From: Candidatus Limnocylindrales bacterium
GTDB lineage: Bacteria; Moduliflexota; Moduliflexia; Moduliflexales; JAUQPW01
DNA: 64,000 nt
Assembly (NCBI GenBank): GCA_035559535.1
Contig: DATMBG010000051.1
Span: 434,001-498,000, forward strand
Direction: 5' to 3'
The translations under genes and the position numbers were made by a program. The notes below the pieces were generated by a model. It had not been told where the DNA came from and made no database searches. It saw only the letters and a list, made by a program, of their open reading frames with translations. Positions 19,163-51,318 of the stretch are shown here, piece after piece (position 1 is the stretch's first letter; each line of letters begins with the position of its first letter).

Positions 19163-19846
19163 CTAGGACCTGAACAACCGCGTATACAAGAATTCGTGTT
19201 GCATTCCCCGGATATCCAGGGCCGGGGTAAATGGAGCTAGATCTTCCTTTTTACCTGTAAGGACCCGATGGACTACCTCCCATATGATAGGATGAAGATC
19301 CCGGATAAGCTTCTGTCCCTCTACCTGTCCTAAAGCAAAGAGGCGAATGGCCGCCGAGATCATGGAAAGTGTCCAGGAGGAAAGGTAGGTCTGTAGGGCT
19401 TCTTCCCTATGAATTTTCAAAATGAAGCATCCGGCTCCATAGGCTATGGCATAATGTCCCTGCATTTTTCCCTGGGTGATAGCCTGGAGGAGTTGGCTCA
19501 GAAGAGGGTCCGGATAGACCTCTTGAAGGGTTTTTAAAAATCGGATCCCCATTCGAATACTGGACTCACGGAAAGCTTTTACCGGTTTAAGGGCTGTCAA
19601 TAACCCATCCAGCTCCAAAACCTCTTTCAGGTTCTGCTTCTCGAGTGCTTCCAGGGTTAACTTTAAAGCCAGGGCATCCCCTTTTCCTTTTCCCTGTCGG
19701 AGAGCGGTCGTTAATAACTTTAGCAGATTTTCCTTAGAAAGGCTATGGGATTGAGCATAGGCTTCTAGCCCTTCCGAGAAAGAGTAGGCTCCAATAGGGA
19801 AGAGAGAATCGGCTATTTGGAGAAGTCGAAGATGTCGAAGGCCCAT
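19163..19846 (-). CDS. ureF: Urease accessory protein UreF
   Basis: The 227-residue helical protein begins LRLLQIADSLFPIGAYSFSEGLEAY, the UreF signature, and has the GHYAIAYGAGC segment in its second half. UreF helps load nickel by gating GTP hydrolysis by UreG in the UreD-F-G complex. It is the last gene in the leftward ure cluster. No ureG or ureD follows, since the next gene is convergent, so the remaining maturation factors must lie elsewhere. Confidence 0.93.
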   Translation of the reverse strand: MGLRHLRLLQIADSLFPIGAYSFSEGLEAYAQSHSLSKENLLKLLTTALRQGKGKGDALALKLTLEALEKQNLKEVLELDGLLTALKPVKAFRESSIRMGIRFLKTLQEVYPDPLLSQLLQAITQGKMQGHYAIAYGAGCFILKIHREEALQTYLSSWTLSMISAAIRLFALGQVEGQKLIRDLHPIIWEVVHRVLTGKKEDLAPFTPALDIRGMQHEFLYTRLFRS

Positions 19847-19875: not shown

Positions 19876-20304
19876 TCATGGGGAATGACTTTGAAAGTGT
19901 GGCTTAAAGGGACGAAGCTCTCGCCGGAAGGTAACTTTTATTTTTTTTAAAAAAACTTCCAGAGGAAGATCATAGAGAACGAGAATACCGTCCGGCTCGA
20001 TGGCAATGGTTTTATGTTGATTGCCTATGTGATGAGCTACCAGGGCGGCTTCTCTCCAATCGTCGGGTTTAATCACCAGCACATCTTCCTCACGGGCAGC
20101 CACGATAAAAGCAAGATTTCCTTCGACGTGAAGGACGTCCCCGGGCTGTAAAAGGGTTCCCGTGGGTAAAGTCAGACCTAATTCCAGTCCGCTTTTTGTT
20201 TTAATTCGCTGCCGGGTCCTCTGCCGGTCTTCCCAGGTCATGGGAATATATTCAATTTCTTTTCCGGTCAGATCCCATCGCTTGAGTTCTTGAACCAGGA
20301 TCAT
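19876..20304 (-). CDS. ureE: Urease nickel metallochaperone UreE
   Basis: The 142-residue protein has the UreE N-terminal domain (RQRIKTKSGLELGLTLPTG, LQPGDVL) and the C-terminal ferredoxin-like domain with the conserved HHIGNQHK motif, whose first His pair contributes to the dimeric nickel site. There is no His-rich tail (the end is HFQSHSP), so it resembles short UreE types that deliver rather than store nickel. It lies between ureC and ureF on the same strand. Confidence 0.94.
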   Translation of the reverse strand: MILVQELKRWDLTGKEIEYIPMTWEDRQRTRQRIKTKSGLELGLTLPTGTLLQPGDVLHVEGNLAFIVAAREEDVLVIKPDDWREAALVAHHIGNQHKTIAIEPDGILVLYDLPLEVFLKKIKVTFRRELRPFKPHFQSHSP

Positions 20305-20524: not shown

Positions 20525-22234
20525 TTAAAAGAGAAAGTATCGCTGAGCCATGGGGAGTACTGAAGCCGGTTCGCATTTCAAGAGTATCCCGTCTGCCCGA
20601 ACTTCGTAGGTTTCCGGATCAACCTCCATTTTCGGAAGATAGGCATTGAGTTTCATATCTTTTTTTCCGATATTACGGCAATTTTTAACCGGTAGAAGGG
20701 GACGTTCGTGTTTAAACGAGATTCCCTTCTTCAGAGATATTTCCGATACGAAGCTATAAGCCGTACTTGCCGGAGCCTTTCCGAAGGAGCCAAACATGGG
20801 GCGATAGATAACCGGTTGGGGAGTTGGTATGGAAGCGTTGGGATCACCCATGGCATTGGCTGCGATGAATCCCCCTTTGAGGATAATTTCCGGTTTTACT
20901 CCGAAGAACGCCGGTTTCCAAAGTACCAAATCGGCTATTTTCCCTATTTCGATAGAACCCACATAACTGGAAATACCGTGGGTAATAGCCGGATTAATGG
21001 TGTATTTAGCTATGTATCGTTTCACTCTGAAGTTATCATTATCTCCTGTTTCCTCGGGGAGACGTCCTCGCTGTCGTTTCATCTTATCGGCCGTCTGCCA
21101 GGTTCGAATAATAACTTCTCCTACTCGACCCATAGCCTGGGAATCTGAACTCATCATGCTAAAGGCCCCCAGGTCGTGAAGAATATCTTCGGCAGCAATG
21201 GTTTCTGCCCGAATCCGGGATTCGGCAAACGCCACATCTTCAGGAATTTTAGGATCTAGATGATGACACACCATCATCATATCCAGATGTTCTTCTACAG
21301 TGTTAACCGTAAAAGGACGGGTGGGATTGGTTGAAGAGGGAAGGACGTTGGCTTCCCCGCAAACTTTGATGATATCCGGTGCGTGCCCCCCGCCTGCCCC
21401 TTCCGTATGATAGGTATGGATCGTCCGACCTTTAAAAGCGGCAATGGAATCTTCAACAAATCCCGATTCGTTCAGGGTGTCGGTGTGAATGGCAATTTGT
21501 ACATCGTAATCCTCTGCCACCGAGAGGGCACAATCAATGGTAGCCGGGGTGGTCCCCCAGTCCTCATGAAGTTTCAATCCAATAGCTCCTGCTTCAATCT
21601 GTTCAATAAGAGGTTTGGGAAGGGCCGAATTCCCTTTTCCTAAGAACCCAAAGTTCATGGGAAAACCTTCTACAGCTTCCAACATCCGGTGAATATTCCA
21701 GGCTCCGGGGGAACAGGTGGTTGCGTTGGTTCCCGTAGCAGGCCCCGTACCGCCTCCGACCATGGTTGTAATACCGGCATATAAGGCTTCCCAGATCTGC
21801 TGCGGACAGATAAAATGGATATGGGAATCAATACCCCCCGGGGTAACGATCAAGCCTTCCCCGGCGATCACCTCGGTAGAAGGCCCTACCACCATGGAAG
21901 GATCCACCCCGTTCATGACCCCCGGATTCCCTCCTTTGCCAATACCCCAAATACGACCATCTCGAATTCCAATATCTGCCTTTACAATTCCCCAGTAATC
22001 CAGGATGATGGCATTGGTAATAATCAAATCTAAGGCCCCGTCGGCCCGTGTATGCTGTGCCGACTGGCCCAGATTATCCCGAAGGACTTTACCACCCCCA
22101 AAGACACATTCGTCTCCATAATGGGTATAATCCTTTTCAATCTCAATGATCAATTCGGTATCGGCCAGTCGAACTTTATCTCCTGTGGTAGGACCAAACA
22201 AATTCGCATAGGTTCTTCTAGGTATTCTTAACAT
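20525..22234 (-). CDS. ureC: Urease alpha subunit (catalytic)
   Basis: The 569-residue protein contains the complete urease active site: [10 protein letters not shown] (two nickel His), [10 protein letters not shown] with the carbamylated Lys, the [13 protein letters not shown] His, the [14 protein letters not shown] loop, the MVCHHL mobile-flap region, and the Asp ligand in [10 protein letters not shown]. It hydrolyses urea to ammonia and carbamate in the cytoplasm. Its start overlaps the end of ureB by 17 bases. Length is normal. Confidence 0.98.
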
Positions 22235-22662: not shown

Positions 22663-22968
22663 CTAGGATCTTATCGGGTCGTGGATCGTAACCAACTTCG
22701 TCCCATCGGGAAACGTCCCTTCTACTTGAATTTCTGTAATCATCTCCGGAACTCCCTCCATTACATCGTTCCGGGTGAGGATAGTCGCCCCGTAAGCCAT
22801 AAGCTCGGTAACGGATTTTCCGTCCCGAATACCCTCCAGGATCTCAGAGGTAATCAAAGCAACGGCTTCCGGGTAATTAAGCTTGAGTCCTCGTGCTCGC
22901 CGCTTTCTGGCCAACTCACCGGCCAGAAATATCAAGAGTTTTTCTTGCTCTCGTTCGGTTAAATACAT
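22663..22968 (-). CDS. ureA: Urease gamma subunit
   Basis: The 101-residue protein shows the family sequence [31 protein letters not shown] and [20 protein letters not shown]. It is the first gene of the leftward ureABC-E-F set. A sigma-54 promoter match lies about 240 bases upstream, leaving a long untranslated leader that contains a TTCTCCCT/AGGGAGAA hairpin but no T-run. Confidence 0.98.
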
Positions 22969-23206
22969 GTCTTTTCCTTCATTGAGAAACCTCTGTTCCC
23001 ATGGAAAACGGGGTTCCTCAACTTTCCAAATCCAAAAATGTATCTGCCCGGCCCAGGATTACTCCTTCTTCTCCCTACGATAAAAGGGAGAAAAGGGAAT
23101 TTTACTCGAACCTTCCAGGCCGCGGCTTTACCTTTTCCGTTCTATCAGAGCGGTTGAAACCCGATAGATAATGCTTGAAAACAGCTTACCAGCAAATCCC
23201 TAAAAG

Positions 23207-23222
23207 TGCAACCTAAATGCCA
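23207..23222 (-). promoter_or_regulatory. Sigma-54 (-24/-12) promoter upstream of ureA
   Basis: On the minus strand the site reads TGGCATTTAGGTTGCA: GG and GC separated by exactly ten bases, with TGGCA and TTGCA matching the consensus TGGCACG-N4-TTGCA at all but two positions. It points toward ureA. An almost identical site stands before urtA. Sigma-54 control by NtrC-type activators is the usual nitrogen-limitation circuit. Confidence 0.75.
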
Positions 23223-23669
23223 TTGTCTGGTTAAAATTTAATTACGACGGAGTAGTGGGTTGATAAAAATTTTGATGATTTTTTAATCACCTTCTTCTAG
23301 ATCTGCTGGGAAATAAAAGCTAAGAGGATAAGGTAAAATATAGAAAGAGAAAGTATTACACAAACTGCCTATAACTTAGTAAATAGATGCCTAAACTTTA
23401 ATCAGATCTGACATTTGGATATGAGCCCCCCCATCCTAATTTTCCCTCCACCTATTTCCCTTGAGCTTGGGACAGGCCATGGCATGGGGTAAACGGCATA
23501 CCTATCAAGCTAAGAAGGGGAAAAGCCTTATTTTTGGTCTGAACACCCCCCCTCGAGGGGGAAGGGGGGGTGTTTCCCCACACGCGCCAGGATAAGGCTT
23601 AGCTGAACCTCCTGCGTGTCCCTGGTTGCAGAAAAGATGTTTGTCGAAACTAGAGGTTAACCCAGAAGA

Positions 23670-23697
23670 GTAGGGGCGTACGGCCGTACGCCCCTAC
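23670..23697. repeat. Perfect 28-bp palindrome (GTAGGGGCGTACGG plus complement)
   Basis: This is the most regular member of the palindrome family in the window. It lies 220 bases upstream of the Omp85 barrel gene in a region otherwise without genes. Confidence 0.85.
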
Positions 23698-23804
23698 TTT
23701 TTACTTATAAAACTTGCCAAAAAATAAAGTTGCTTTATACTTTATAACTTATAAAGGAAAGAGATGTATCCAAATTTCTTTTAGTACATCCTGATCGTGA
23801 TCTT

Positions 23805-23820
23805 TTATAACCTGTTATAA
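23805..23820. promoter_or_regulatory. Candidate operator TTATAAC-CT-GTTATAA
   Basis: Two perfect 7-bp inverted arms separated by two bases lie about 96 bases before the barrel start codon. Similar TTTATAACTTATAAA words occur about 70 bases upstream. A TTGACA at about 23844 follows. The symmetry suggests a dimeric repressor or activator site; the regulator is unknown. Confidence 0.35.
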
Positions 23821-23916
23821 GTTGAATGTATGATAATTAAATGTTGACAAATTAAAACGCGGAGGAAAAATTGAGGAAAACTTGATCCTGACGGTTTATC
23901 CACATAAGTCATACCC

Positions 23917-25206
23917 ATGATACAAAAGCTCTTTCTCATCATTCTTCTACTTATCCCGGGTGGAGTTTTAAGTGCCTCAGAGGAAGGCCCGGGCAGTCGA
24001 ACCGAACAGCTAGAACAACAGCGTCTTCAAAAGCTTCAAAAAATCGAGCCTTATCGTCAGACAGGATTGGAAAGGGATTTCCTTTGGGTAGAACAAAATC
24101 TCGACAAACTCTTACATCTTAACTACAAAGGATTCTACCCTCAAGCCGGAAGTATTAGTACAGGATCTGGTATCTCCCTGGGGGTTCGTTATTGGAAACC
24201 CGATTTGGGCGATTCATCCCTTGACCTTCAACTCTCGGCAGCTGGCTCATTGCATGGTTATCAAGAATATGCCTTTCAATTTGGAAAGATTCCACAAGCG
24301 GAGCCCGGACTTCTTTTGGAGTCTATTCGCTCCGAGCGTATCTACCAATTGGGAGATATTCCGATAAAACAACGAGGTTCCTTTTATTACGTGGACCTTC
24401 GTTATCGGGATTTTCCCCAAGAGGACTTTTTCGGTATTGGGCCCCAATCCAGAGAAGAAGATCGGTCGAATTTCAGGCTCAAGAACACTTCCTATGATGC
24501 CGTTATAGGATATAGATTTTCTCGATGGCTTCGAGTAGGGACCCGGTTAGGGTTTCAACAATTCGATATCGGTGGCGGGACCGATGATCGTTTTCCGGAT
24601 ACCCAGGCTTTATTCAACGAGACTTCGGCGCCGGGATTGACAGAGCAACCAGATTTTTTTCTCTTGAGACCCTTTGTACTCTTTGATTACCGGGATGTAT
24701 CCGGGAATCCTCATAAAGGGGGTTTGGTAGGTTTTTCATTTACTCGATTTGATGATGTGGATAAAAGTCAATTTGACTTTAACCGTTTTATCTTCGAAAC
24801 CCGGCAATTCCTGCCATTATTTTCAAGATCCCAGATACTGGCTTTACGTTTCTTCACGTCCTTGAGCGATGCGGACAAGGGGAGCCAGGTTCCCTTCTAT
24901 CTTCAAGAAACGCTCGGTGGAGGTGATACGCTTCGGGGTTTTGCTACCTTCCGATTTCAAGATAACGACCTGTTGTACCTTTCGGCAGAATATCGCTTTG
25001 AGGCTGCCTCAGCTTTAGAACTTGCCCTCTTTTATGATACGGGAAAAGTCTTTCCCGACCGTTCAGATTTTAATTTCAAGGACTTAGAGAACAGCTACGG
25101 TTTTGGAATCAGAATTAAGGCCCCTTCGGCAGTCATCTTCAGATTTGATGTAGGTCATAGCGGCGAGGGCACTGAGTTTCATTTTAAATTCGGATCGTCG
25201 TTCTAA
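23917..25206 (+). CDS. POTRA-less Omp85/BamA-type outer-membrane barrel (copy A)
   Basis: The 429-residue protein has a signal peptide (about residues 1-19, cleavage near LSA-SEE), a short Gln/Leu-rich region, and then a beta-barrel of the BamA/TamA/bacterial-surface-antigen family. The C-terminal half holds the conserved YLQETLGGGDTLRGF motif, where LRGF corresponds to the VRGF/Y loop of Omp85. Repeated barrel strands follow, and the protein ends in Phe as outer-membrane proteins do. There are no POTRA repeats, so it is unlikely to be the essential BamA. It is followed by the exported kinase-like gene, and the same pair recurs at 55.9 kb, so the two proteins probably work together. What the pore moves or inserts is unknown. 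Confidence 0.8.
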   Translation: MIQKLFLIILLLIPGGVLSASEEGPGSRTEQLEQQRLQKLQKIEPYRQTGLERDFLWVEQNLDKLLHLNYKGFYPQAGSISTGSGISLGVRYWKPDLGDSSLDLQLSAAGSLHGYQEYAFQFGKIPQAEPGLLLESIRSERIYQLGDIPIKQRGSFYYVDLRYRDFPQEDFFGIGPQSREEDRSNFRLKNTSYDAVIGYRFSRWLRVGTRLGFQQFDIGGGTDDRFPDTQALFNETSAPGLTEQPDFFLLRPFVLFDYRDVSGNPHKGGLVGFSFTRFDDVDKSQFDFNRFIFETRQFLPLFSRSQILALRFFTSLSDADKGSQVPFYLQETLGGGDTLRGFATFRFQDNDLLYLSAEYRFEAASALELALFYDTGKVFPDRSDFNFKDLENSYGFGIRIKAPSAVIFRFDVGHSGEGTEFHFKFGSSF

Positions 25207-44006: not shown

Positions 44007-44702
44007 TTATACCGTTAAGTGCCTGCGGACAATCTCTTCTCCAATTTCCTGCCTTGTTCCCTGGGCAACAATAGTACCTTTGTCCATGATATAATAAGTA
44101 TCGGCCAGACGTTCAGCGAACTCGATGTACTGCTCGACCAACAAAATTGTAATTTTGCCTTCGGCTTTAAGGTGGGCAATAACTTCCTCGATTTCGAGAA
44201 TAATGGACGGTTGAATACCTTCTGTGGGCTCATCCAGTAATAAGAGTTGGGGTTCTCCTACCAGGGCCCGGGCAATGGCCAGTTGTTGTTGTTGACCTCC
44301 GCTCAATACCCCACCCTGACGCTGAAGCATGGTCTTGAGAACCGGGAACAAGCGAAATACCTCCTCCGGGAGGGTCTGTTGCTTATCTTTTCGGGCTTCT
44401 AATCCCAGTCGTAAATTTTCACCTACACTGAGTTGGGGAAAGATTTCTCGTCCCTGGGGTACATAGCCAATCCCCATGCGGACCCGTTCATGGGTACTAC
44501 GTCGGGTAATGTCTTTCCCTTGAAAGATGACCCGACCGCTACGGACCGGGAGGAGACCCATGATTCCTTTAAGCAAGGTAGTCTTGCCGGCCCCATTACG
44601 TCCCATCAGACAGACTATCTGCCCGGCCGGTACCTGCAGGCTTACCTGCCTCAAAATATGACTCTGACCGTAATAAACATTCAGATTCTCAACACTCAAC
44701 AT
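44007..44702 (-). CDS. urtE: Urea ABC transporter ATP-binding protein UrtE
   Basis: The 231-residue protein has Walker A GRNGAGKTTLL, the SGGQQQQLAIARAL signature and LLLDEPTEGIQPSI, with the GMGYVPQGREIFPQ region of the LivF/UrtE group. It is the last gene of the leftward urtABCDE set, which imports urea at low concentration. The assignment to urea rather than branched-chain amino acids rests on the neighbouring UrtA and UrtB. Confidence 0.94.
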   Translation of the reverse strand: MLSVENLNVYYGQSHILRQVSLQVPAGQIVCLMGRNGAGKTTLLKGIMGLLPVRSGRVIFQGKDITRRSTHERVRMGIGYVPQGREIFPQLSVGENLRLGLEARKDKQQTLPEEVFRLFPVLKTMLQRQGGVLSGGQQQQLAIARALVGEPQLLLLDEPTEGIQPSIILEIEEVIAHLKAEGKITILLVEQYIEFAERLADTYYIMDKGTIVAQGTRQEIGEEIVRRHLTV

Positions 44703-44720
44703 AACCGTGGTTTTTAACTT

Positions 44721-45491
44721 TTACCTCCCCGTTGAATTGTCGTTACGTTTCCTTCCCAGATAGATCTCCACAACCCGTGGATCGTTTTGGACCACTTCTA
44801 CCGGGCCCTCACACAAAACCTGCCCCTCGTGAAGAACCGTAATTTTCCGTGCAATCTGACGTACAAAGGCCATATCATGTTCAATAACCAACACAGAATG
44901 ATCCTCTGCAATTCTTTCCAATAGCTTGGCCGTGTGGGCCGTTTCTTGATCGGTCATACCGGCAACCGGTTCATCAATGAGCAAAAGTTTAGGTTCCTGT
45001 AACAAAACCATGCCGATCTCTAACCACTGTTTTTCACCATGGGCCAGGACTCCTGCCGGCACATGGGCTTTGGATGCCAATCCGGTGATATCCAATACCG
45101 TCTCGATACTTTGTAATTGCCTGGATGAAAGAGGGGACAGCAGGGTTGCAAACACACCTCGCTTGGGTTGGTAAAGGGAAAGCTCTAGATTTTCAAAAAC
45201 GGTCAGGTGATTGAATACCGAAGGAGTTTGAAATTTACGACCTACGCCCAGCCGAACGATTTCATGTTCACGGAGTCGGGTGATATCGGTATTCATTCCG
45301 AAAATCACCCGACCCTCTGCAGGTCTGACCCGCCCTGAAATCACATCCAGCAAGGTGGTTTTACCTGCTCCATTGGGACCGATAACCACTCGCAGCTCGG
45401 GATAATCCATATAAAAGTTTAACCTCTGCAGAGCCTTGAAACCGTCAAAGCTTACCGTTACGTCTTCTAGATAGATAATGGATCCTTGCAT
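44721..45491 (-). CDS. urtD: Urea ABC transporter ATP-binding protein UrtD
   Basis: The 256-residue protein has Walker A GPNGAGKTTLLDVI, VGRKFQTPSVFNHLTV, LAHGEKQWLEIGMVL, and LLIDEPVAGMTDQE, the UrtD version of the LivG motifs. It powers the UrtBC permease with UrtE. It lies 18 bases upstream of urtE. Confidence 0.95.
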   Translation of the reverse strand: MQGSIIYLEDVTVSFDGFKALQRLNFYMDYPELRVVIGPNGAGKTTLLDVISGRVRPAEGRVIFGMNTDITRLREHEIVRLGVGRKFQTPSVFNHLTVFENLELSLYQPKRGVFATLLSPLSSRQLQSIETVLDITGLASKAHVPAGVLAHGEKQWLEIGMVLLQEPKLLLIDEPVAGMTDQETAHTAKLLERIAEDHSVLVIEHDMAFVRQIARKITVLHEGQVLCEGPVEVVQNDPRVVEIYLGRKRNDNSTGR

Positions 45492-45535
45492 TTTAAATTA
45501 ACTTCCCCCATTAACCCTTAACATGATTCCAGAGA

Positions 45536-46672
45536 TTAAGGATTAACGGCCAGTGCAGCCTGTTTTCTTTTAAAGAATGAGCGTTCTCGTAAATAATTGC
45601 GATGGAGTTGTCGTAACGATCCTATAATCCCATCTGGAAACAACAGAACGACGGCAATGAATAAGCCTCCCAGGAAATATAGCCAGAAATCGGGATAATG
45701 GGTGGTCAGGAAACTCCGCATCCAGTTAACCACGACAGCGCCTAAAGCAGCTCCCACGAGAGTACCACGCCCGCCGACTGCCACCCAGACTACCATTTCA
45801 ATGGAAGGAAGCACCCCAATAGCACCCGGTGTAATAATCCCTACCTGTGGAACATACAGGGCTCCAGCCAGACCTGCCAAACCTGCCGATAGAACAAATA
45901 CAAACAACTTAAATTCAGCCGGAGAGTAGCCTAAAAAACGGACTCGATTCTCACCATCCCGGATGGCTATCAACATGCGACCCAGGCGCGAACGTACTAT
46001 CCAACGACAGAGCAGATAAGCTCCCAACAAGCAGATGGCCGTTATTATATATAACCCCCGTTTGGTACCCGGATTCTGCAAAGGAAAACCGAGCAGGGTT
46101 TTAAAATCTGTTAATCCGTTGGTTCCTCCCAGGTTCAGGGAATTACGGTTAAAGGTTAGCCAGGCAGACAGCGCAAGGGCCTGGGTAATAATGGAAAAAT
46201 AGACCCCCCGGATGCGGCTGCGAAATGCAAAGAAACCGAATATGGTAGCAAACAACATGGGCACCAGGAATACAGCCAGTAGAGTAAATCCAAAACTATA
46301 AAAAGGCTTCCAGAAGAGAGGTAGTTCGGTGACCCGGTTCCAAACCATAAAATCGGGTAAGTTACTCCGATATACCCCTTCGGTACCTATGGATAAAGCC
46401 AGATGCATGCCCATGCAATAAGCCCCCAGGCCAAAGAAGACCCCATGACCCAGACTCAGAATCCCGGTATAACCCCAGATCAGGTCGAGCCCCAGGGCGA
46501 GAATAGCATAGGCGAGGAACTTGCCAAACAGATTTAAAGAAAAATTCGATACCCGATACCAGGCCCCTTCGTCGGGAAGTACATTGAGAAGAGGCAGGAT
46601 GACCACTAAAAATAGGGCTACGATCATAAAAGGCAGCCATGTTCTGAATAATGAAGCAGATACTTTACCCAT
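45536..46672 (-). CDS. urtC: Urea ABC transporter permease UrtC
   Basis: The 378-residue protein has about 9-10 membrane segments and the LivM/UrtC signature (GYTGILSLGHGVFFGLGAY, VRSRLGRMLIAIRDGENR). Length fits UrtC. It forms the channel with UrtB and lies 44 bases upstream of urtD. Confidence 0.94.
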   Translation of the reverse strand: MGKVSASLFRTWLPFMIVALFLVVILPLLNVLPDEGAWYRVSNFSLNLFGKFLAYAILALGLDLIWGYTGILSLGHGVFFGLGAYCMGMHLALSIGTEGVYRSNLPDFMVWNRVTELPLFWKPFYSFGFTLLAVFLVPMLFATIFGFFAFRSRIRGVYFSIITQALALSAWLTFNRNSLNLGGTNGLTDFKTLLGFPLQNPGTKRGLYIITAICLLGAYLLCRWIVRSRLGRMLIAIRDGENRVRFLGYSPAEFKLFVFVLSAGLAGLAGALYVPQVGIITPGAIGVLPSIEMVVWVAVGGRGTLVGAALGAVVVNWMRSFLTTHYPDFWLYFLGGLFIAVVLLFPDGIIGSLRQLHRNYLRERSFFKRKQAALAVNP

Positions 46673-46717
46673 AACCGATCCCCCGGTAATTAATACCTAG
46701 CAATTCCTTGATAATTG

Positions 46718-48529
46718 TTAATTTTCAATGCTTCGTCCTTTAAGTGCAAAAAGCCCTGAAGGCTTCGCCTGAAGGAGTAGGATAACCAGGATAAGAATTG
46801 CAACTTTACTAAAAACCGAACCCAGACTGGGTTCGAAGATTTTATTGAGACTTCCAATCCCAAGAGCGGCTAAAATAGAACCTGCCAATTTACCTACACC
46901 CCCGGTAACTACAACCATAAAAGAATCCACCACATAGGTTTGACCTAAATCGGGTCCCACATTACCGATCTGGCTTAAGGCGCATCCCGCCAGCCCGGCC
47001 ATACCTGCTCCAAATCCAAACGTCCAGGCATCTATTTTACGGGTTGCAATTCCAAGACAGGAGCTCATAGAGCGATTTTGTGTGACGGCCCGAATTTTCA
47101 ATCCTATATTCGAACGAAAAAGCACAGCGTAAGTGATTATAACGCATACCACCGCCAATCCGATAATGAAAAGTCGATTGTAGGGAAGATAAACCCCCAC
47201 CAGAATCTGGATACCGCCACTGAGCCAATTTGGAGAAACTACCGAGACGTTTGCTGCACCAAAGATCTGTCGTACCGCCTGTTGCAGAATCAAGCTAACA
47301 CCCCAGGTAGCCAGTAAAGTTTCCAGGGGTCGCCCGTAAAGGAAACGAATCAGACACCGCTCCAAAAGTAAACCCATCCCACTGGCCACTACAAAGGAGA
47401 AGGGAAGAGCCAGTAAAAAGTAGTAATTAAAAAGACTAGCAGGTAAAGAGTTCACAAACCATTGTTGCATCACATAGGTGGCATAGGCTCCCAACATCAT
47501 AAGTTCACCGTGGGCCATATTAATGACACCCATTAAACCGAAGACGATGGCCAGCCCTAAAGCCATCAAGAGCAAAATAGAACTGAGACTAATCCCTCGA
47601 AACAGGGTCTCCACGACCCGGGTAAAGATTGCCCAATTTTCTATCTTCTTAATTGCCTGTCCGGCAGCTTCACGCACAGTTGGATCCGGGTCCCCTCCAG
47701 AGCCATCGGGAGTTGTATCCTGTAATTTTTGAAGGCCGGGAATCGCCTCTTCAACACCTAACTCTCCAAGCCGTCGGGCCGCAGTACGTCGTACAGTAGG
47801 ATCTGCGTCTGTTAATTTGATGAGTTGAATCGCGGCCTCAATAGCGTAACGGTTCCATCGATCCGATTCGGCGGCCAAAGCCTCTGTCAACAAGGGTATA
47901 GAAGCCGGATCTCCCATCTGACCCAGCTTAATAGCAGACGCCCGACGGGTACTGCTATCCGGGCTGAAGAGGCTGAGCCGGTTGGTAAGATCATCAATAA
48001 AAGGCTTAATTATTTTGCGTAAATTTCGATTCGCTTGAATTTCCTTAAGTTCTGTGAGTGGAACCTGGAGGATTTGACCCTTGGCATCCAACAAGGGTTG
48101 TTTACCATATGCACTGAACAGAGGTACAATTTTGGTCTCCCCCTGGGTCAGGATTTCCCCTCCGATGACTATCTGGGATCCTCCGTCGGCAGACTTCCAT
48201 ACATAAAGCCCCCCTTCTCGAAGAGCAATAAAAAGCGGAAGTAATTGAAGATCATTCCGTTTACCCAAGGCCAGGACCGCTGCTTCAAGGGTCGCAGCAT
48301 CCTGACTGGCCAGGGCGGCTATCTCTTGGGAGATCTCGGCTCCGGGAGCCGACCCACCGGTAGCCATCTTTGAGGTTAACTCACCTTCCGCGCCTTCCAC
48401 CCTCTGGAGCCATCCCCCTAACCCATTCGGGATTAAAATCAATAATAACCCTAAACCCCAGATAAATGCCCAACGACACGCAATCCCATGTTTCTGTTTT
48501 TTCTTTCTACCGGCTGGTATTGTAGCCAT
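46718..48529 (-). CDS. urtB: Urea ABC transporter permease UrtB with N-terminal HEAT-like domain
   Basis: The protein of about 603 residues has a signal or membrane segment (about residues 20-40), a soluble region of some 250 residues with HEAT-type repeats (LGQMGDPASIPLLTEALA, LGELGVEEAIPGLQ), and a LivH-type permease core (GLMGVINMAHGELMMLGAY, IRAVTQNRSMSSCLGI). The extra HEAT region is common in UrtB. I chose the ATG at 48529; the longer frame to 48592 opens with TTG. The 375-bp gap to urtA carries a large palindrome. Confidence 0.93.
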   Translation of the reverse strand: MATIPAGRKKKQKHGIACRWAFIWGLGLLLILIPNGLGGWLQRVEGAEGELTSKMATGGSAPGAEISQEIAALASQDAATLEAAVLALGKRNDLQLLPLFIALREGGLYVWKSADGGSQIVIGGEILTQGETKIVPLFSAYGKQPLLDAKGQILQVPLTELKEIQANRNLRKIIKPFIDDLTNRLSLFSPDSSTRRASAIKLGQMGDPASIPLLTEALAAESDRWNRYAIEAAIQLIKLTDADPTVRRTAARRLGELGVEEAIPGLQKLQDTTPDGSGGDPDPTVREAAGQAIKKIENWAIFTRVVETLFRGISLSSILLLMALGLAIVFGLMGVINMAHGELMMLGAYATYVMQQWFVNSLPASLFNYYFLLALPFSFVVASGMGLLLERCLIRFLYGRPLETLLATWGVSLILQQAVRQIFGAANVSVVSPNWLSGGIQILVGVYLPYNRLFIIGLAVVCVIITYAVLFRSNIGLKIRAVTQNRSMSSCLGIATRKIDAWTFGFGAGMAGLAGCALSQIGNVGPDLGQTYVVDSFMVVVTGGVGKLAGSILAALGIGSLNKIFEPSLGSVFSKVAILILVILLLQAKPSGLFALKGRSIEN

Positions 48530-48715
48530 GAACCTTTGTCTCCCATTTACCGTGAAAATGTTGCCTGAAGGTAAGGACAACCTGACTTTCAAGGGCTGAT
48601 AGACAGACCCCCTTCCCTACTCTTTCCCCTTCCATGGCAAGGAAGAGTTAGAATAGGAGCCTGTCCCCATCCGCTACCTGTAAAGAGCGACCCATCGGGT
48701 AACCCTTTAACGGGA

Positions 48716-48823
48716 TTCCCTTCGTAACTCGCTGCTCACCCTTCGCTCCCTGTAGGGCAGGTTTGAAACCTGCCCTACAGGGTTTCCCTTCGTAATTCAC
48801 CACGCGCCCTTCGCTACGTGTAA
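48716..48823. repeat. Long palindrome flanked by direct repeats between urtA and urtB
   Basis: CCCTGTAGGGCAGGTTT (48748-48764), one central base, and the exact complement (48766-48782) form a 35-bp palindrome. Imperfect direct repeats of about 38 bases flank it, TTCCCTTCGTAACTCGC...CGCTCCCTGTA and TTCCCTTCGTAATTCAC...CGCTACGTGTA (ends near 48716 and 48823). Confidence 0.75.
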
Positions 48824-48904
48824 GGGTAATTAGAGAAAACTGCCTTACCGGCTAACACGGAAATGGTTTAGACCTTGTGGAAGTTATCCAATAAAAATTT
48901 CCTC

Positions 48905-50239
48905 CTAACCTTTGGTATAAGTCCCCTTGTGATTAACCCAATCACAACCTTTATCCGGACTGGTATATTGGCTCCAGGGCTCGGCACGGACTAACCCCTC
49001 GGATTGCCAAACAATTCGAAATTGCCCATCCTTCTGAATTTCTCCAATGAGAACCGGCTTATAGGTGTGATGATTGTTCTCATCCATTTTTTTCTTTCCA
49101 CCGGGTGCCATAAACTCCAGTCCGTAAACGGCCTGGCGGACAGCATCCACGTCGGTAGTACCGGCTTTTTCAACGGCCATCCTCCAGACATAGACTCCGT
49201 AATAAGCAGCCTCGATGGGATCGTCGGTAACCCGAGATTCTCCACCCGGTAAATTATTTTTCTTACAATAGGCTTTAAAATTAGCTACAAACTTCTTGTT
49301 CTCCGGGGTATCAATGGATTGAAAATAGTTCCAGGTAGCCAAATGACCTACCAAGGCAGAGGTATCCATACCTCGCAATTCATCCTCGGCTACACTGAAG
49401 GCCATGATCGGCACTTGCTCCGACGTAATCCCTTGATTAACAAATTCCTTGTAGAAAGGCACATTACTATCTCCATTAATCGTGCTGAGGACTGCGGCAT
49501 CCCCCCCGCTGGCAAATTTCTTAATTTTTCCTACAATGGTTTGATAATCTTGATGATGGAAAGGCGTGTACTCTTCCATAATATTTTCTTCAGGAATACC
49601 CTTAGCTAACAGCATAGCCCGCAGGATTTTATTAGCCGTACGGGGGAACACATAATCCGTTCCTAACAGATAGAATTTTTTATACCCTCCTCCCTCTTTG
49701 CTCATCAAATACTCGGCAGCCGGAATCAATTGTTGATTGGGGGTTGCGCCTGTATAGAAAACATTACGGGAACATTCCTCACCCTCATATTGGACCGGAT
49801 AGAAAAGCAATCCATTGTTCTGCTCAAAAACAGGCAATACAGACTTACGACTTACCGAGGTCCAGCACCCGAAAACAACGGCTACCTTCTCCTGCAACAG
49901 GAGTTGTTTGGCTTTCTCTGCAAAGAGGTCCCAATCCGATGCAGGATCCACCACTACAGGTTGAATCGGTTGACCGAGTACACCTCCACTGGCGTTAATT
50001 TCTTCAACGGCCATCAGAACCACATCCCGTAAAGACACCTCACTGATGGCCATCGTCCCACTTAATGAATGAAGCACGCCTATTTTAATTCCCTTACCCT
50101 GGGCTCTGGCCAGTCGTGGCAGCGGCGTACCCCCTATAAAGCTGCCGGCGGCAAGACCCAGTCCGGCTGCAGCCGTCTGTTTTAAAAACTCCCTACGACC
50201 CGGATTTTGAAGCCCCTTAGGACCCTTTGTATCCGACAT
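48905..50239 (-). CDS. urtA: Urea-binding protein UrtA, Tat-exported
   Basis: The protein of about 444 residues has a twin-arginine signal (GRREFLKQTAAAGLGLAAG) and the UrtA core (KIGVLHSLSGTMAISEVSL, FGCWTSVSRKSVLPVFE, NGLLFYPVQYEGEECSRN, LLGTDYVFPRTANKI, STINGDSNVPFYKE). The start is uncertain. The frame extends to a GTG at 50326 and has in-frame ATGs at 50266, 50245 and 50239; I prefer 50239, six bases after GAGG. It heads the urt operon behind a sigma-54 site and a leader hairpin. Confidence 0.96.
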   Translation of the reverse strand: MSDTKGPKGLQNPGRREFLKQTAAAGLGLAAGSFIGGTPLPRLARAQGKGIKIGVLHSLSGTMAISEVSLRDVVLMAVEEINASGGVLGQPIQPVVVDPASDWDLFAEKAKQLLLQEKVAVVFGCWTSVSRKSVLPVFEQNNGLLFYPVQYEGEECSRNVFYTGATPNQQLIPAAEYLMSKEGGGYKKFYLLGTDYVFPRTANKILRAMLLAKGIPEENIMEEYTPFHHQDYQTIVGKIKKFASGGDAAVLSTINGDSNVPFYKEFVNQGITSEQVPIMAFSVAEDELRGMDTSALVGHLATWNYFQSIDTPENKKFVANFKAYCKKNNLPGGESRVTDDPIEAAYYGVYVWRMAVEKAGTTDVDAVRQAVYGLEFMAPGGKKKMDENNHHTYKPVLIGEIQKDGQFRIVWQSEGLVRAEPWSQYTSPDKGCDWVNHKGTYTKG

Positions 50240-50286
50240 CTTCATCCTCTTCTTCTTTCTCTTCATAGACCTTCGAAGGAACAAAT

Positions 50287-50324
50287 GAACTCCCCAATCT
50301 TTTTTAGAAAAAAGTGGGGAGTTC
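50287..50324 (-). repeat. Near-perfect hairpin in the urtA leader
   Basis: GAACTCCCCA and TGGGGAGTTC form a 10-bp outer stem around a TTTTTT/AAAAAA inner stem (38 bp in all). It lies between the sigma-54 promoter and the preferred urtA start, so it would be in the urtA mRNA leader. Confidence 0.65.
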
Positions 50325-50387
50325 ACCGGTACTTTCAGAAGGAGTGTTAAAACCTAGATTAAGCTTGCTTGGTTGATAGATCTGAAG

Positions 50388-50403
50388 AGCAACTCAAATG
50401 CCA
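50388..50403 (-). promoter_or_regulatory. Sigma-54 (-24/-12) promoter upstream of urtA
   Basis: The minus strand reads TGGCATTTGAGTTGCT, with GG and GC exactly ten bases apart and near-consensus halves. It points at urtA, with 149 bases to the preferred start. It differs from the ureA site at only three positions. Confidence 0.78.
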
Positions 50404-51318
50404 ATTCAGTCAAAAACTAACTTATGTAATCTCAACAACTTAAAAAAACCCGTCTGGAAAAAATGCCTAATACTTGGGCAGGTAGGGAGGGGATCTGTCT
50501 AAAAAAGAGGCTAAAGGAACTGACCCTAAGTCCTTGCAGTAAATTTTTAAACGTCTGAAAGCCCGAAGATTTCACGAAAACAACCCTGGAAATCTTATGC
50601 TGACCCTGACTAAAGAGGTGGCTCCTGGGGAGGGGCGACTCTGCGGAGCTTTTATGTAGGCCATCCTGCCCTTCCTTTCTCACAGGCAGGGAGGGTCAGG
50701 GTGGGGTGGTTCCCATGTGCATCAAGTTAAGGATTAAGTAGGGCGTCTGGACACCCTCCTGACTCCCTTTCCGGGGTAGATGTTTCTAACCTGACCCTCT
50801 AACCCCCTTCCTGATGCGGGAAGGGGGAACTCGGAGATGGTTTGGATCCTAACTCTTCCCTTTCCTGTAGCCTGGATTAGTACCCTTTCTTGAGGATTAA
50901 TAAGGCTTCCTACGCTAAGGTTACTTAAAGAAACCTACCCTTAAAAGCATGCTCCCACCTTATCGGCTACACGCTCAGTTAGAAAAATCTCCCCTTTCTT
51001 CGCCTCTAGCTTCTCCTCATTCCCCCACTTAGGGCATCTCGATTACTTCACGAAACAATATAATGCCGGTAGTTGAGCGACTTGAACTACACTCCCTTCA
51101 TTAAGGGGAAAACTTATGCTGACGTCGCTTGGGGTATGTAGATGCTAGGAGGTTGTGGCAAAGCCGGCTTTCCAAGCTGATGTTTGACGATGGCCTCTTA
51201 AACCGAGACAACACTAAAATAAACCTTATGAGCTGGATCACGAATCATGTGCTGTTCCCGTGACACCATATCCAATGACCTCCGCTTTACCTGTGCTGCG
51301 AAGTACAGCGGAGCAGGG
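50404..51318. other. Spacer of about 900 bp without a supported gene
   Basis: Only short shadow frames are seen. A weak relative of the ATCAAGCTAAG repeat (near 50716) is present. A CTCCGCT/AGCGGAG hairpin at about 51279-51312 follows the carbonic anhydrase stop and may end that transcript. Confidence 0.45.

What the first reader, a model, noticed from the sequence alone, without database searches (positions are those of the whole stretch)
23207..23222. Matching sigma-54 promoter in front of urease, with a long leader
TGGCATTTAGGTTGCA differs from the urtA site at three of sixteen positions although the operons are 27 kb apart. It is about 240 bases from ureA, leaving an unusually long leader containing a TTCTCCCT/AGGGAGAA hairpin, so a second layer of control is possible.
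Basis: partly seen in the sequence, partly recalled or inferred. Interest (0 to 1): 0.65.

Follow-up and report, generated by a model that had tools for sequence, protein, structure and literature searches.

The report
Nitrogen-type sigma-54 promoter before urease

Summary
The site is real: TGGCATTTAGGTTGCA, minus strand, 239 nt before ureA. The genome has rpoN, about 28 sigma-54 activators and 28 strict sites against 4 in a backward control. A sister MAG keeps all 16 bases. The 3-of-16 likeness to urtA is not special: 75 of 378 pairs of sites in this genome are that close. Better evidence of a shared regulon is an NtrC-box-like palindrome, TGCCYAANNNTTRGGCA, 77 bp before both the urtA and a liv-like promoter, before amt2, and (weaker) before glnK-glnA-ntrB-ntrC. 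ureA has only a degenerate copy (8 of 500 shuffles as good), poorly kept in the sister, so NtrC control of ureA is likely but not settled. The leader is long but not exceptional (13th of 23). The named hairpin lies in the least conserved leader segment and is not supported. A 54-nt block directly before the Shine-Dalgarno, identical in both genomes, forms an 18-pair hairpin and is the better candidate for a second layer; identical noncoding runs of 52-75 nt occur elsewhere in the pair, so it stays a lead. New member of a known kind.

The parts
23207..23222 (-). sigma-54 (-24/-12) promoter TGGCATTTAGGTTGCA of the ureABCEF operon
   Evidence: Strict consensus; 28 sites in the genome vs 4 in the backward control; 16 of 16 identical in sister genome G001, inside a 24-nt identical block 23224-23201
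23388..23404 (-). degenerate NtrC-box-like sequence TGATTAAAGTTTAGGCA, 182 bp before the promoter; a weaker one at 23366-23382, 22 bp nearer
   Evidence: PWM 12.3 bits, 8 of 500 shuffles as good; differs at one of 17 bases from a glnK upstream box; one base poorer in G001
23264..23292 (-). 29-nt identical block with the near-palindrome GGTGATT-AAAA-AATCATC (23274-23291): possible activator or bending-protein site
   Evidence: 100% identical in G000 and G001 in an 80% identical region; palindrome found by script; function inferred
22969..23195 (-). predicted untranslated leader of ureA, about 227 nt (start site inferred about 12 nt past the -12 GC)
   Evidence: position of the promoter and ureA; start site not mapped
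   Evidence: Folds well here (2 of 1000 shuffles as good), but the stretch 23060-23109 is only 34 of 51 columns identical to G001 and the G001 fold is unremarkable (93 of 1000 shuffles; drift 0.199)
22977..23030 (-). 54-nt invariant leader block; hairpin GUUGAGGAACCCC..CAGAGGUUUCUCAAU at 23022-22981, ending at the Shine-Dalgarno
   Evidence: 54 of 54 identical; 18 pairs, -17.6 kcal/mol, mean pair probability 0.92 in the leader; single copy, in 2 of 144 genomes
22979..23002 (-). possible mini-ORF MGTEVSQ*, start codon at the loop of the conserved hairpin, stop at the ureA Shine-Dalgarno
   Evidence: read from sequence; identical in G001; no coding signature can be tested on invariant DNA
22663..22968 (-). 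ureA, urease gamma
   Evidence: TIGR00193 168 bits
22218..22601 (-). ureB, urease beta
   Evidence: TIGR00192
20525..22234 (-). ureC, urease alpha
   Evidence: TIGR01792 981 bits, cut-off 680
19876..20304 (-). ureE
   Evidence: best UreE model 111.4 bits, below its cut-off of 138
19163..19846 (-). ureF
   Evidence: PF01730
50388..50403 (-). sigma-54 promoter of urtABCDE, TGGCATTTGAGTTGCT
50464..50480 (-). NtrC-box-like palindrome TGCCCAAGTATTAGGCA, 77 bp before the urtA promoter
   Evidence: Same spacing as a liv-like promoter in both genomes
44007..50326 (-). urtABCDE urea ABC transporter operon
   Evidence: TIGR03407, 03409, 03408, 03411, 03410 over cut-offs

Best explanation
The site is a sigma-54 promoter that drives ureABCEF when nitrogen is short. 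RNA polymerase with RpoN binds the -24/-12 element and waits as a closed complex. A bacterial enhancer-binding protein, most likely NtrC encoded in the glnK-glnA-ntrB-ntrC cluster, binds upstream boxes and opens it by ATP hydrolysis. The same activator would drive urtABCDE, a liv-like transporter, an ammonium transporter and glnK, so that urea uptake and urea hydrolysis rise together. Shown here by sequence: the promoter, RpoN, NtrC, the shared palindrome at the other nitrogen genes, and conservation of the ureA promoter. Inferred: which activator acts at ureA, the start site and the response to nitrogen. The leader's named hairpin probably has no function of its own. The invariant hairpin beside the ribosome site may tune translation or mRNA stability.
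For: rpoN present; 28 strong activator genes; 28 sites vs 4 control; site fully conserved in the sister genome; a protein over the ntrC equivalog cut-off (562.7 vs 558.6 bits) in a cluster with P-II, glutamine synthetase and a PAS histidine kinase; palindrome TGCCYAANNNTTRGGCA 77 bp before urtA and liv-like promoters, and 136-137 bp before a one-mismatch sigma-54 site at amt2 in both genomes; held-out test on glnK, 1 of 500 shuffles as good. The E. coli NtrC box reported in PMC8743547 (passages seen) has the same 17-bp length, 3-bp centre, outer TGC/GCA and inner A/T.
Against: The ureA box is degenerate and weaker still in the sister (best hit there reached by 31 of 500 shuffles). The genome has about 28 activators, so another may act, perhaps through the invariant palindrome at 23274-23291 that the urtA and glnK upstreams lack. 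No strict or loosened sigma-54 site was found upstream of glnK; one with a mismatch in the -12 element is there. amt1 shows no good box. I saw no expression data for this organism.
Confidence: 0.7

Rival explanations
1. A sigma-54 promoter, but driven by an activator other than NtrC that binds the invariant palindrome GGTGATTAAAAAATCATC 52-69 bp upstream; urease would answer to another signal than urea uptake.
For: This palindrome lies in a 29-nt block identical in both genomes while the NtrC-box-like sequence decays; no match with 3 or fewer mismatches to its consensus lies within 300 bp before 26 of the 27 other sigma-54 sites (one 3-mismatch match, at L015), and none upstream of glnK; the sister keeps the ureA promoter although its best UrtA-like protein is only 29% identical.
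Against: AT-rich near-palindromes are common (24 matches with 3 or fewer mismatches in 440,711 bases); it could be an IHF or HU bending site, although no IHF consensus with one mismatch or fewer falls within it.
Confidence: 0.25
2. The leader hairpins are a true second layer (riboswitch, RNA-binding protein or mini-ORF control) acting on ureA.
For: The 54-nt block before the Shine-Dalgarno is invariant while the leader just upstream is 67-72% identical; a stable 18-pair hairpin; 1 of 200 shuffles of the whole leader folds as well as the leader.
Against: Two identical sequences give no covariation; the 81-nt fold alone is unremarkable (21 of 200 shuffles); identical noncoding runs of 52-75 nt occur seven times elsewhere in about 4.6 kb compared; no Rfam family; the Shine-Dalgarno is mostly unpaired.
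Confidence: 0.15
3. The site is a chance match and ureA is transcribed from a nearer sigma-70 promoter.
For: 6 of the genome's 28 strict sites lie inside long ORFs, so some matches are chance.
Against: Intergenic, right strand, 16 of 16 conserved; no minus-strand sigma-70-like site at 22850-23950.
Confidence: 0.05

Closest known systems
NtrC/sigma-54 control of urea use in Pseudomonadota (Pseudomonas stutzeri A1501, PMC8443478; Bradyrhizobium DOA9, PMC13207237; passages seen)
   Same: In P. stutzeri ureC and ureE transcripts fall in an ntrC mutant and a putative NtrC site lies before ureE; in Bradyrhizobium ure and urt genes fall in rpoN mutants and urtABC has a predicted -24/-12 site TGGCATGGTTCTTGC at -77.
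   Different: Here the organism is an undescribed lineage, ure and urt are separate operons 27 kb apart, and the palindrome differs from the E. coli NtrC box.
E. coli NtrC box TGCACCAnnnTGGTGCA (PMC8743547, passages seen)
   Same: 17 bp, 3-bp centre, outer TGC and GCA, inner A and T.
   Different: Positions 4 and 6 and their mates: TGCCYAA against TGCACCA.
Helicobacter 5'ureB antisense RNA (Rfam RF02514)
   Same: Scores 81.6 bits on the strand opposite ureC at 21787-22084.
   Different: Lies inside ureC, not in the leader; the match may merely reflect the conserved urease coding sequence (inference).

Membership tests
sigma-54-dependent promoter | TGGCAY-N5-TTGCW core | tested here: met
   23207-23222 minus
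sigma-54-dependent promoter | RpoN and AAA+ activators encoded in the genome | tested here: met
   PF00309 5.4e-18; 28 PF00158 matches at E 1.4e-62 or better among 36
sigma-54-dependent promoter | site conserved in a relative | tested here: met
   16 of 16 in G001, the only same-genus genome held
sigma-54-dependent promoter | transcription start about 12 nt downstream and loss in an rpoN mutant | not testable with these tools
   no expression data
NtrC regulon | NtrBC two-component pair in the genome | tested here: met
   ntrC over the equivalog cut-off; neighbouring PAS histidine kinase, below the NR(II) cut-off (193.1 vs 240)
NtrC regulon | NtrC box upstream of ureA | tested here: inconclusive
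   best hit 12.3 bits, 8 of 500 shuffles; G001 31 of 500
NtrC regulon | NtrC box upstream of urtA | tested here: met
   TGCCCAAGTATTAGGCA at 50464-50480; this site was used to define the motif; the liv-like, amt2 and glnK sites support it
structured RNA leader or riboswitch | covariation or a match to a known family | tested here: not met
   no Rfam match in the leader; invariant in the only two genomes, so no covariation

The most novel reading that the evidence does not exclude
The invariant 54-nt hairpin beside the ureA ribosome site, with a seven-codon mini-ORF that starts at its loop and stops at the Shine-Dalgarno, is an undescribed cis-acting RNA element that couples urease translation to a second signal beyond the sigma-54 promoter.
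Probability: 0.1. Interest if true: 0.5.

Novelty: new member of a known kind. Interest (0 to 1): 0.27.

Why it matters
It shows that an undescribed, probably hot-spring lineage wires urea uptake and other nitrogen genes through sigma-54 and an NtrC-box variant that can be read from sequence. That gives a testable regulon and replaces a resemblance between two core promoters with a defined activator site. The leader element is a small, specific lead.

Tried and rejected
Likeness of the two core promoters as evidence of co-regulation: rejected, 75 of 378 site pairs are as close.

The named hairpin as a conserved element: rejected on comparison. It does fold in the sister by different pairing, but 93 of 1000 shuffles and 19.9% of 2000 drifted copies do as well.

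An intrinsic terminator in the leader: none found at 22850-23950.

A known RNA family in the leader: none (five sub-threshold matches are taken as chance).

Sigma-54 before ureA in other species: only 2 of 80 loci (the sister and an Akkermansiaceae MAG, L082) have a strict site within 600 bp upstream. This is a weak negative, since ureA need not be first in its operon and one locus (L094) had under 600 bp.

Other copies of the leader block: none by blastn in 4 genomes or covariance model in 144 genomes beyond the ureA leaders of G000 and G001.

Conservation of the 54-nt block as proof of function: not accepted, because runs of 52-75 nt occur elsewhere.

The sister's glnK upstream could not be checked: its contig ends inside the first box.

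In one search I compared the wrong flank of ureA and did not turn minus-strand loci; both were redone and are not used.

Papers: six search listings seen; passages of PMC8443478, PMC12316311, PMC13207237 and PMC8743547 (one search found no passage).

Full report
What is there. The 16-mer TGGCATTTAGGTTGCA is at 23207-23222 on the minus strand, 239 nt before the ATG of ureA. Downstream on the same strand are ureA, ureB, ureC, ureE and ureF. ureG and ureD lie together on another contig with no sigma-54 site (looser pattern) in the 6 kb fetched. The urt operon (urtABCDE, 50326 to 44007) has its own site at 50388-50403.

Is it more than chance? The strict pattern TGGCAYNNNNNTTGCW is found twice in the window against 0.05 expected, and 28 times in the 5.6-Mb genome against 4 for the pattern read backwards. 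Of the 28, 6 lie inside ORFs of more than 300 nt. The genome has rpoN and 36 matches to the activator domain, 28 of them at E 1.4e-62 or better. The only same-genus genome held, G001, has the same UreA protein. It keeps 16 of 16 bases of the site inside a 24-nt identical block, while the flanks are 80.3% (upstream) and 83.7% (5' leader) identical. JZ-2 turns up in papers on Tengchong hot springs (search listing), so a hot-spring origin is likely, by inference.

The likeness to urtA. It is what the consensus gives: among the 28 sites, 75 of 378 pairs differ at 3 or fewer of 16 positions, and the site nearest to ureA's is that of a liv-like operon (2 differences), not urtA. The better evidence lies further upstream. 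A 17-bp palindrome starts exactly 77 bp before the urtA site (TGCCCAAGTATTAGGCA) and 77 bp before the liv-like site (TGCCTAAAAATCAGGCA), the latter also in G001. A genome scan allowing one mismatch gave 15 matches in G000 (control 11) and 11 in G001 (control 10), both strands counted, so the motif alone is not enriched. Yet one match seen in both genomes lies 136-137 bp before TGGTATACTCATTGCT; in G001 that site precedes an ammonium transporter gene, and in G000 the contig ends before the gene. A weight matrix built from these three sites scores the glnK upstream at 17.1 bits (1 of 500 shuffles as good) with a second box at 15.9. glnK is followed by glutamine synthetase, a PAS histidine kinase and a protein over the ntrC equivalog cut-off. 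The 17-bp layout matches the E. coli NtrC box given in PMC8743547. I therefore read the palindrome as this lineage's NtrC box.

ureA itself. The best box is TGATTAAAGTTTAGGCA at 23388-23404, 182 bp upstream: 12.3 bits, 8 of 500 shuffles as good, the highest among the 26 sigma-54 upstreams of G000 tested (ureA and 25 others; urtA and liv-like were in the training set). It differs at one base of 17 from the second glnK box. A half-box follows 22 bp nearer. In G001 the same position is weaker (7.5 bits), and the best hit anywhere in its 400 bp is matched by 31 of 500 shuffles. By contrast a 29-nt block at 23264-23292 with the near-palindrome GGTGATTAAAAAATCATC is identical in both. So NtrC is the likeliest activator, but another one is not excluded.

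The leader. Assuming a start about 12 nt past the -12 GC (recalled rule for sigma-54 promoters), it is about 227 nt. Distances from site to ORF run from 45 to 865 nt for the 23 of 28 sites that have an ORF of at least 95 aa within 900 nt; ureA is 13th. Some of those ORFs may not be true targets. The hairpin TTCTCCCT/AGGGAGAA at 23069-23092 folds well here (2 of 1000 shuffles) but lies in the least conserved leader segment (34 of 51 columns), and the G001 fold is no better than 93 of 1000 shuffles or 19.9% of simulated drift. The stretch 23030-22977 is 54 of 54 identical and forms an 18-pair hairpin of -17.6 kcal/mol that ends at the Shine-Dalgarno, which stays mostly unpaired. It holds a mini-ORF, MGTEVSQ, that starts at the loop and stops at the Shine-Dalgarno. 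Against a strong claim: in about 20 kb compared between the two genomes, noncoding identical runs of 52 nt or more occur at seven other places, and noncoding identity is 86.7% overall (the unannotated stretches may include short genes). The block is single-copy and found in 2 of 144 genomes, so covariation cannot be tested.

Known context. NtrC or RpoN control of urease and of urt is documented in Pseudomonas stutzeri (PMC8443478) and Bradyrhizobium (PMC13207237). A sigma-54 survey lists urease genes, mainly in alpha- and beta-Proteobacteria (PMC12316311). In the 80 ureA loci fetched from other genomes, 2 have a strict site within 600 bp upstream, one of them the sister. The finding is thus a new member of a known kind in an undescribed lineage.

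Noticed in passing
window 21787-22084 (+): Rfam RF02514 (Helicobacter 5'ureB antisense RNA) scores 81.6 bits, gathering 40, opposite ureC. It may only reflect the conserved urease coding sequence read from the other strand, so Rfam hits to this family in other urease genes need care.
   Followed up: no
G000:C39:69500-75500 (L190) and G001:C83 (L191): ureG and ureD are unlinked to ureABCEF in both genomes, with no sigma-54 site in the stretch fetched.
   Followed up: partly
G000:C44:103000-113000 (L164); same promoter in G001 (L169): A liv-like ABC transporter operon has a sigma-54 site and an NtrC-box-like palindrome at exactly the urtA spacing; its substrate could be another nitrogen compound.
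   Followed up: partly
L161, about 430 to 260 nt before glnK: At least two good, and two weaker, NtrC-box-like sequences before glnK-glnA-ntrB-ntrC, with only a one-mismatch -24/-12 site.
   Followed up: partly
window 23540-23580: C-rich/G-rich inverted repeat (CCCCCCCTCGAGGGGGAAGGGGGGG) between ureA and the divergent Omp85-like gene; G001 has a longer version and a second related copy nearby.
   Followed up: no
window 46718-48592 (-): UrtB is 624 aa with about 330 residues before the UrtB permease match.
   Followed up: no
G001 whole genome: No close UrtA in the sister MAG (best 29% identity), although it keeps urease and its promoter; could be real loss or a gap in the assembly.
   Followed up: no
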